A DNA stretch of 35,857 bases from Planctomycetota bacterium. Lineage in GTDB: Bacteria > Planctomycetota > Phycisphaerae > Phycisphaerales > SM1A02. Numbering within the stretch: the first letter of the stretch is position 1; each line of letters opens with the position of its first letter. Positions 4,071-4,664 of this stretch are shown here, one piece after another. The position numbers were made by a program, and so were the translations under genes. The stretch is taken from positions 1 through 35,857 of the forward strand of contig VGYB01000020.1 of NCBI GenBank assembly GCA_016873115.1, given 5' to 3'. Below the pieces are notes generated by a model. It was not told the DNA's origin and made no database searches. It saw nothing but the letters and a program-made list of their open reading frames with translations.

Positions 4071-4664
4071 TCAGGGCTCCTCATCAGAGTCGTCTTCCTC
4101 GGCCTCCTCATCCGCGTCGTCTTCGTCGTCGTCTTCGTCGTCGTCGTCTTCGAAGTCGTCGTCGTCGTCATCATCGTCGTCGTCGTCATCATCGTCGTCG
4201 TCGTCTTCGACGTCGTCGTCGTCGTCATCATCGTCGTCGTCGTCATCATCGTCGTCGTCGTCATCGTCGTCATCGTCGTCATCGTCGTCATCGTCGTCAT
4301 CGTCGTCATCATCGTCATCATCGTCATCATCGTCGTCATCATCGTCGTCATCATCATCGTCATCGTCGTCGTCTTCCCCATCGTCTTCGTCTTTCCCATC
4401 GTCTTCGTCTTCCCCATCCACTTCGCCTCCGAAGAAGTCATCATCATCCTCGGTGTCGGGGTCCTCCTCCTCACCCTTGGAATCGCCGTCCTTCTGCTCG
4501 TCCTCATCGAGTCCATCCTCGTCGGCGAATTCCTCCTCGCCGAAATCGTCGTCGTCATCGATCTCCTCGAAAGCGTCAGCATCCTCCTCGTCGTAACCGA
4601 TGGCTTCCTGTGAGGGGGCGATGAGGCTGGCGAATGTCCGGCCGCTGGCCGCGATGGATGGCAT
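4071..4664 (-). CDS. Polyaspartate-rich acidic protein of unknown function
   Basis: The protein has 197 residues. The first ~35 (beginning MPSIAASGRTFASLI) are ordinary; nearly everything after is Asp or Glu. It includes an unbroken run of 54 Asp (4212-4373) and one of 17 Asp (4155-4205), with a few Gly, Phe, Lys and Val residues elsewhere. The start at 4664 is chosen because GGAGGA sits 3 nt before it and because the reading frame further upstream overlaps the preceding gene. It lies 44 nt downstream of the large propeller gene on the same strand, so it is probably its operon partner. A terminator follows. There is no signal peptide or membrane segment. Cation binding, nucleic-acid mimicry or a chaperone-like acidic tail are all conceivable; none is demonstrated. 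The complementary strand is open too and reads as polyserine, but it has no comparable start signals. Confidence 0.8.
   Translation of the reverse strand: MPSIAASGRTFASLIAPSQEAIGYDEEDADAFEEIDDDDDFGEEEFADEDGLDEDEQKDGDSKGEEEDPDTEDDDDFFGGEVDGEDEDDGKDEDDGEDDDDDDDDDDDDDDDDDDDDDDDDDDDDDDDDDDDDDDDDDDDDDDDDDDDDDDVEDDDDDDDDDDDDDDDDDFEDDDDEDDDEDDADEEAEEDDSDEEP
4149..4262. repeat. 57-bp tandem duplication in the polyaspartate coding region
   Basis: Bases 4149-4205 and 4206-4262 are two adjacent 57-bp copies that differ only at one base (A at 4154, C at 4211). Each has the plus-strand form TTCGAM followed by five GTC, two ATC, four GTC, two ATC and four GTC. They code for Asp runs separated by Phe-Glu or Val-Glu on the minus strand. 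Confidence 0.92.
4257..4310. repeat. 9-bp repeat GTCGTCATC, six copies
   Basis: Six perfect head-to-tail copies of GTCGTCATC on the plus strand (Asp-Asp-Asp on the minus strand) lie inside the 54-residue Asp run. Irregular mixtures of GTC and ATC follow up to 4373. The array sits at the end of the 57-bp duplication and looks like later local expansion. Confidence 0.9.

What the first reader, a model, noticed from the sequence alone, without database searches (positions are those of the whole stretch)
4071..4664. Small protein with a 54-residue uninterrupted Asp run
The 197-residue product is almost entirely Asp/Glu after a ~35-residue head. It has its own strong SD (GGAGGA), a terminator, and codes on the same transcript as a large secreted propeller protein. 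I recognise no family. It has no secretion signal. Such polyanions can bind divalent cations, mimic nucleic acid or act as histone-chaperone-like tails; which, if any, applies is open. The short ordered head (MPSIAASGRTFASLIAPSQE) is the part to search with.
Basis: partly seen in the sequence, partly recalled or inferred. Interest (0 to 1): 0.6.

Follow-up and report, generated by a model that had tools for sequence, protein, structure and literature searches.

The report
Conserved bacterial poly-aspartate disordered protein
Freshwater planctomycete bacteria carry a real, conserved gene for a small, probably unfolded and extremely acidic protein whose charge and phenylalanines are kept by selection while its exact sequence drifts; it seems to have its own promoter and may shield positively charged proteins, but its function is untested.

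Summary
Window 4071-4664, minus strand, encodes 197 residues with an uninterrupted run of 54 Asp. It is a real gene: found in 9 of 9 genomes of the genus, in 19 of 19 of a sister genus (18 with the core seen; one cut at the core by a contig end), and in 14 of 20 testable genomes of other genera of the family, after the same exported beta-propeller gene; absent there in 12 of 12 testable relatives outside the family. Selection keeps the acidity: genus tail codons have G first in 625 of 634 and A second in 618, third base mixed. Phe is enriched about sixfold in the acidic parts of one protein per genus, although two base changes from GAN codons. The part conserved across genera is an acidic-aromatic core (residues about 22-58), not the head. 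A positionally conserved promoter-like site precedes the gene, so sharing the propeller's transcript is not shown. No Pfam, NCBIfam or PHROGs family matches. Most likely it is a cytosolic disordered polyanion binding basic proteins, working like acidic domains of histone chaperones. Cation buffering and a link to the propeller remain open. Function is inferred.

The parts
4071..4664 (-). Acidic protein CDS, 197 aa (P0001), including stop codon
   Evidence: conserved frame in genus-mates
4602..4664 (-). Non-acidic head, residues 1-21, conserved only within the genus
4485..4601 (-). Acidic-aromatic core, residues 22-60 (Y-D-E ... D-D-F-x-x-E-E-F-x-D-E-D-G), the part conserved across genera
   Evidence: (12 invariant and 2 nearly invariant columns over 21 sequences of two genera)
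4212..4373 (-). Uninterrupted run of 54 Asp codons (residues 98-151), GAC/GAT mixed
4668..4673 (-). Shine-Dalgarno GGAGGA, 3 bases before ATG
   Evidence: unchanged in 8 of 8 genus loci aligned
4684..4712 (-). Promoter-like site TTGACA-N17-GATAGT; the TTGACA overlaps the propeller stop codon
   Evidence: 1 found, shuffles mean 0.4; footprint
4019..4043 (-). Terminator-like hairpin
4709..8977 (-). PQQ/BamB-type beta-propeller protein (P0002), probably exported (signal-like stretch by eye), conserved upstream partner
   Evidence: PF13360 6.5e-18; synteny
2679..3965 (+). Convergent gene P0003 (possible lipoprotein by eye, no family), often conserved next to the pair
143..2707 (+). Secretin, GspD-like; conserved neighbour in many relatives
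   Evidence: PF00263 1e-43; TIGR02517 334 bits, below its cut-off of 351
9357..11504 (-). Polyphosphate kinase 1, upstream of the propeller here and in some relatives

Best explanation
The gene makes a small cytosolic, intrinsically disordered polyanion of the acidic-aromatic kind. Dense Asp/Glu gives long-range attraction for basic surfaces, and spaced Phe/Tyr in the core and tail act as short anchors. It would hold, shield or hand over basic proteins (nucleic-acid-binding or ribosomal proteins are the obvious candidates) in the way that acidic domains of histone chaperones hold histones. In the sister genus a basic Lys/Pro/Arg-rich C-terminus follows the Asp run and could compete in cis, an autoinhibitory arrangement. 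Shown here: the gene is real and conserved, its acidity is under selection, its Phe are enriched against mutation, a promoter-like site before it is conserved, and its constant neighbour is the propeller. Inferred: cytosolic location, disorder, promoter activity and every binding partner.
For: Acidity under selection: 634 tail codons in 8 genus members have G first in 625 and A second in 618, third base mixed; in other genera 854 and 835 of 969. Head dN/dS 0.05-0.15. Aromatics: in one protein per genus (16 proteins) F+Y are 63 of 294 non-acidic residues of the acidic parts, against 5.4% F+Y+W among 4910 non-acidic residues of 8 window proteins; F alone 52 of 294 against 2.8%. F codons are two changes from GAN codons. 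Twelve core columns, including four aromatic ones (one Y, three F), are invariant over 21 aligned sequences of two genera. AlphaFold2 gives no ordered structure (mean pLDDT 57). No signal peptide visible in the proteins read. Solved precedent for acidic chain plus aromatic anchors: APLF (PMC9328677, abstract and passages). Basic tails in the sister genus.
Against: No partner or binding has been shown; acidic-aromatic disordered chains serve many functions. Over all 37 proteins, 15 of them sister-genus ones with basic tails, F is only the fourth commonest non-acidic residue (139 of 1568, after G, K and A). No histone-fold protein (PF00808) in 16 of 16 genomes. The constant partner is a probably exported propeller, which a cytosolic role does not explain. 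The core is recognisable by profile in only 3 genera. The AlphaFold model rests on 8 sequences, one of them the G004 contig-end chimera, so it is weak evidence for disorder. Signal peptides were judged by eye.
Confidence: 0.4

Rival explanations
1. Divalent-cation (Mg2+/Ca2+) buffer or counter-ion store: the Asp run binds metal loosely, and only its charge matters.
For: Net charge -137; Asp runs of 24 or more in 9 of 15 complete sister-genus frames; negative charge clusters are mentioned as coordinating calcium, magnesium or zinc (PMC6821194, passages).
Against: Phe enrichment and a nearly invariant core are not needed for a metal buffer. The 15 sister-genus proteins carry 8-29 Lys each, which would lower cation binding. 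Some members are short (86 aa, net -41 and -46), and pure Asp runs of 24 or more are missing in 6 of 15 sister-genus frames and in all 14 other-genus frames measured.
Confidence: 0.2
2. Functional partner of the propeller: it helps the propeller's synthesis, export or regulation.
For: The acidic gene follows the propeller in 14 of 20 testable genomes of other family genera and in 19 of 19 of the sister genus. It stays with the propeller in 6 genomes where GspD was not found in the stretch fetched, and in 9 where PPK1 was not found upstream.
Against: Separate promoter-like site. 6 of 20 family genomes and 12 of 12 outside the family have the propeller without it, so the propeller does not need it. 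Different compartments are inferred.
Confidence: 0.2
3. Polyphosphate-binding protein of the PASK type, linked to the PPK1 gene upstream of the propeller.
For: PPK1 lies upstream of the propeller in the window and in 6 of 6 longer loci of the two genera compared, and in 5 of 14 other acidic-positive genomes against 0 of 6 negatives, within 3.1-4.9 kb. 28 of 37 proteins meet the published PASK definition (definition read in PMC12345225 passages).
Against: 9 of 37 have no PASK window and 6 of 37 contain no Lys. Two genomes with PPK1 upstream, G032 and G034, have Lys-free proteins. The definition is almost automatically met by an acidic protein with one Lys.
Confidence: 0.07
4. The DNA is mainly a translational device or a meaningless simple repeat: the head shields the ribosome from acidic-run destabilisation, or the run is neutral slippage.
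For: 9- and 18-base periodicity; tail length varies freely. Acidic runs near the N-terminus destabilise bacterial ribosomes, while those in the middle of frames are shielded by the chain in the tunnel (PMC9718836 passages; PMC11282234 section 9). The acidic stretch starts at residue 27 or later in 36 of 37 proteins.
Against: Neutral slippage is contradicted by codon positions 1 and 2 and by wide retention. The neighbouring downstream gene here is convergent, so there is nothing obvious to regulate in cis. A C-terminal acidic tail has a head anyway, so the start position is weak evidence; no control was run.
Confidence: 0.08

Closest known systems
Acidic domains of histone chaperones (APLF acidic domain; FACT subunits)
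   Same: Disordered acidic chain with aromatic anchor residues in APLF (PMC9328677, abstract and passages); FACT seen only in a search listing
   Different: Bacterial, free-standing, far more acidic; no match to any PDB chain by the core profile, and no histone-fold protein found in 16 of 16 genomes
Bacterial DNA-mimic proteins such as DMP19
   Same: Acidic proteins that compete with nucleic acid for basic proteins, e.g. HU (PMC5722371, search listing and start of abstract only)
   Different: Known DNA mimics are folded (recalled); no Pfam match here
Acidic C-terminal domain of Hfq
   Same: Bacterial acidic disordered tail that autoregulates (PMC5606850, search listing and start of abstract only)
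   Different: A tail of a folded protein and much less acidic (recalled); P0001 shows no folded domain
PASK polyphosphate-binding motifs
   Same: Acidic, Lys-containing stretches; PPK1 nearby
   Different: Lys not conserved across the family
Asp-rich biomineral proteins of molluscs (aspein type, recalled)
   Same: Long Asp-rich stretches
   Different: Those are secreted matrix proteins (recalled); no signal sequence is visible here

Membership tests
Histone chaperone acidic domain | Acidic chain with aromatic anchors | tested here: met
   F+Y 63 of 294 non-acidic residues in 16 one-per-genus proteins; conserved core. Composition only; anchoring itself is untested
Histone chaperone acidic domain | Histones present as clients | tested here: not met
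   PF00808 in 0 of 16 genomes; control rings in 3 of 14 well-known genomes, all archaeal
Histone chaperone acidic domain | Direct binding of basic client proteins | not testable with these tools
   needs biochemistry
PASK polyphosphate-binding protein | 20 residues with at least 75% D/E/S/K and one Lys | tested here: inconclusive
   28 of 37 proteins; 20 windows in the window protein; 6 of 37 have no Lys
PASK polyphosphate-binding protein | Binds polyphosphate through Lys | not testable with these tools
   needs gel-shift assay
RNA polymerase delta subunit (RpoE) type acidic-tail protein | Folded N-terminal HARE-HTH domain before the acidic tail (recalled) | tested here: not met
   0 Pfam families at E up to 1, 0 NCBIfam at E up to 0.001
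Asp-rich biomineral protein | Secretion signal | tested here: inconclusive
   No hydrophobic signal visible in the N-termini read; by eye only, no predictor on hand
DNA-mimic protein | Folded protein with DNA-like charge surface (recalled) | tested here: inconclusive
   AlphaFold2 mean pLDDT 57 from 8 sequences, no helix of 4 or strand of 3 residues

The most novel reading that the evidence does not exclude
One bacterial family has kept, perhaps since its base, a free-standing electrostatic chaperone built from an acidic-aromatic core and a polyacidic chain. Its poorly conserved head of about 30 residues has the job of filling the ribosome exit tunnel, so that bacterial ribosomes can pass acidic runs, among them Asp runs of 24 to 54 residues, which near a start codon would be expected to provoke ribosome destabilisation.
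Probability: 0.15. Interest if true: 0.75.

Novelty: new variant of a known kind. Interest (0 to 1): 0.55.

Why it matters
Acidic-aromatic disordered chaperones are, to my knowledge, described mainly in eukaryotic nuclei. A syntenic, selected, free-standing bacterial counterpart would offer a simple system for asking what net charge and spaced aromatics can do without a folded domain. Because composition is kept while sequence drifts, profile searches miss it, which suggests that other bacterial polyanions may be overlooked. The long Asp runs also give a natural test of how bacterial ribosomes cope with acidic nascent chains.

Tried and rejected
Rejected: spurious or decaying repeat. Another reading frame of the same DNA: substitutions in the head are mostly synonymous in this frame; the other frames were not compared between species. 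A known family (none; phmmer against PDB gave two chains at E up to 1, 9d2f at 0.00043 and 7eeb at 0.096, which I read as composition matches without looking at the alignments; the core profile gave 0 PDB matches at E up to 10; the propeller gave 0 at E up to 0.001). Literal histone chaperone. PASK/polyphosphate as the family-wide role. GspD or PPK1 as obligate partner.

Led nowhere or limited: the head model found only 4 of 19 sister-genus genomes. A class-wide draw with the core found one weak outside match, G221 at E = 0.0045; its frame was read and has no long acidic tail. In 14 family genomes P0001 matched in 4; G009, which has the gene, was missed, so absence by that search means little. 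Literature searches listed no paper whose title or abstract I recognised as describing this protein; that covers only the open-access library and these terms. The quick propeller tree needs at least 6 gains or losses of the acidic label, has long branches (G013, G032, G015, G047), 9 open forks of 37 and a midpoint root; one early gain with losses is one reading, not shown. One of two structure jobs and no fold search was used. Rows dropped: G018 from the tree, and 4 of 9 genus members and 15 of 19 sister-genus members not put into it; G015 (run of N) and G004 (contig-end chimera) from the statistics; G065, G067, G076 and G081 (incomplete).

Full report
What is there. On the minus strand of 4071-4664 lies a frame of 197 codons with 111 Asp, 30 Glu, net charge -137 and one run of 54 Asp. 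GGAGGA stands 3 bases before the ATG. A terminator-like hairpin follows. A search with the protein found no second copy in its own genome at E up to 0.001, but the same search missed the G009 homologue, so it is not sensitive to diverged copies.

It is a real gene. All 9 genus members searched match a model of the 62-residue head. Complete frames were read in 8 of 9; in G004 the frame runs into a dockerin-like segment at a contig end. The propeller is directly upstream in 8 of 9; in G006 the two genes lie on two contigs that end between them. The 8 complete frames are 144-197 residues, with longest Asp runs of 5-21 in the 7 mates. The head of the window protein against 7 mates gives dN/dS 0.05-0.15; over 28 non-independent pairs pS is 0.262 and pN 0.030. 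After residue 80 the tails of the 8 hold 634 codons: first base G in 625, second base A in 618, third base C 315, G 117, T 102, A 100. In the other genera (13 proteins) the figures are 854 and 835 of 969; in the sister genus the count ran through the basic tail and says little. A neutral repeat would not spare two positions and vary the third. The 54-Asp run mixes 33 GAC and 21 GAT.

It belongs with a propeller gene across a family. In the sister genus (g47), 19 of 19 genomes have the propeller and the acidic gene after it; four frames are cut by contig ends (G065, G067, G076, G081), G081 so early that only the head and the start of the core are seen. One more genus (G204) shows the same order. 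Of 28 genomes, one each from other genera of the family, 23 had a propeller match; 3 end too soon (G012, G018, G031), and of 20 testable, 14 have a small acidic frame downstream on the same strand: G009, G010, G013, G015 (partly N), G019, G020, G023, G024, G026, G032, G033, G034 (frame begins 588 bases away), G035, G036. Six do not: G011, G014, G017, G027, G028, G030. Outside the family 13 of 24 genomes had a propeller match, and in 12 of the 12 with at least 3 kb downstream there is no such frame; G059 had only 281 bases. In the 14 positives GspD was found nearby in 8 and PPK1 upstream in 5; in the 6 negatives, 1 and 0 (tblastn E up to 1e-5 in the stretches fetched). So of the genes compared, the propeller is the constant partner. 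A quick tree of 40 propellers clusters the label (6 changes against 13.3 in shuffles; 0 of 500 shuffles as low), with long-branch and rooting caveats, and near-copies help such clustering.

What is conserved. Heads differ between genera. The shared part of three genera is an acidic-aromatic core: 12 invariant and two nearly invariant columns over 21 aligned sequences of two genera. A model of it finds 28 of 181 family genomes, in 3 genera, and 8 of 397 in a class-wide draw, of which 7 are the same two genera and one (G221) is weak. In the remaining genera only position, acidity and scattered aromatics are kept. In 16 one-per-genus proteins Phe is the commonest non-acidic residue of the acidic part (52 of 294, against 2.8% among non-acidic residues of 8 window proteins), and F+Y is 63 of 294 against 5.4% for F+Y+W. 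Over all 37 proteins, where sister-genus basic tails weigh heavily, F is fourth with 139 of 1568. Phe codons are two changes from GAN, so this is not leakage from Asp or Glu codons. Sister-genus proteins add a basic Lys/Pro/Arg-rich C-terminus after the Asp run; this genus does not. Their longest Asp runs are 4-53, 24 or more in 9 of 15 complete frames; in 14 other-genus frames they are 3-9, with Glu mixed in. AlphaFold2 with the genus alignment gives mean pLDDT 57 and no helix or strand of note.

Its own promoter-like site. TTGACA-N17-GATAGT ends 19 bases before the ATG, with TTGACA overlapping the propeller's stop codon. By itself the match is unremarkable (shuffles give 0.4 on average); the argument is conservation. 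In the genus TTGACA and GATAGT are unchanged in 8 of 8 loci aligned, with a variable spacer of constant length, and also in the ninth, G006 (L010). In the sister genus 18 of 19 have TTGACA-N17-GATATT; G066 has TTGACA-N17-AATACT. G009 has the GATATT form too. The other genera were only looked at by eye and vary. Among all loci held at that time, 28 distinct sites of the form TTGACA-N17-GATA[TG]T were found, 25 followed by an acidic frame; the other 3 lie where the locus is cut off and belong to the same gene by position. These loci were mostly chosen around this gene, so that is not a genome-wide rate. In the whole own genome the related pattern TTGACA-N17-KATAWT, which does not cover the acidic gene's own GATAGT, occurs once, 5 bases before the ATG of IMP dehydrogenase (TIGR01302, 589.5 bits against a cut-off of 481.5), which fits a housekeeping promoter. 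Co-transcription with the propeller is neither shown nor excluded.

How it most likely works. A disordered polyanion with aromatic anchors, made in the cytosol, would bind basic proteins; APLF is the solved precedent for acidic chain plus anchors (PMC9328677, abstract and passages). I give this 0.4. Cation buffering (0.2) explains charge but not Phe or the core. A role with the propeller (0.2) explains synteny but not the separate promoter-like site, nor the propellers without it. Polyphosphate binding (0.07) fits PPK1 nearby but fails as a general role: 9 of 37 proteins have no PASK window and 6 have no Lys (definition from PMC12345225 passages). A translational reading (0.08) rests on acidic runs destabilising bacterial ribosomes near the start (PMC9718836 passages) and on EttA dependence only within the first 30 residues (PMC11282234 abstract, outline and section 9); 36 of 37 proteins start their acidic stretch at residue 27 or later, but a tail has a head anyway.

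Known or new. No Pfam, NCBIfam or PHROGs family matched. Two PDB chains matched P0001 weakly, none matched the core profile. Literature searches listed in Tried and rejected showed nothing I recognised as this protein. Polyacidic disordered proteins are a known kind; a free-standing, syntenic, composition-conserved bacterial one with aromatic anchors is a new variant of it.

Noticed in passing
L111:3431-4399 (G029:C10): In a family genome with no propeller match, a similar acidic-aromatic stretch lies in frame at the end of a longer frame with two hydrophobic segments (by eye); it may be a fusion or a separate gene with its own start. It is beside DprA-like and carboxypeptidase-like genes (named by eye).
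   Followed up: partly
L006:6100-6240 (G004:C313, contig end): The acidic tail of one genus-mate runs into a dockerin-like segment (name recalled) in the last bases of the contig. The 8 complete genus frames lack it, so it is probably an assembly join at the repetitive tail.
   Followed up: partly
whole genome G000: 89 matches to that dockerin-like segment in this genome, and 85, 121 and 111 in three genus-mates: a very abundant repeat module.
   Followed up: no
window 2679-3965 (+): A convergent gene without any family, possibly a lipoprotein, found with GspD beside the propeller-acidic pair in several genera.
   Followed up: partly
window 29027-29160 and 29172-29247: Two clean tandem arrays, 18 bases x 7.4 and 24 bases x 3.2.
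   Followed up: no
L164:870-906 (G000:C2): Promoter-like TTGACA-N17-GATATT only 5 bases before the ATG of IMP dehydrogenase, suggesting a leaderless or nearly leaderless transcript.
   Followed up: partly
L045:1408-2016 (G068): The Asp run is broken by Asn residues in one sister-genus member, as if single GAC/GAT codons had mutated to AAC/AAT.
   Followed up: no
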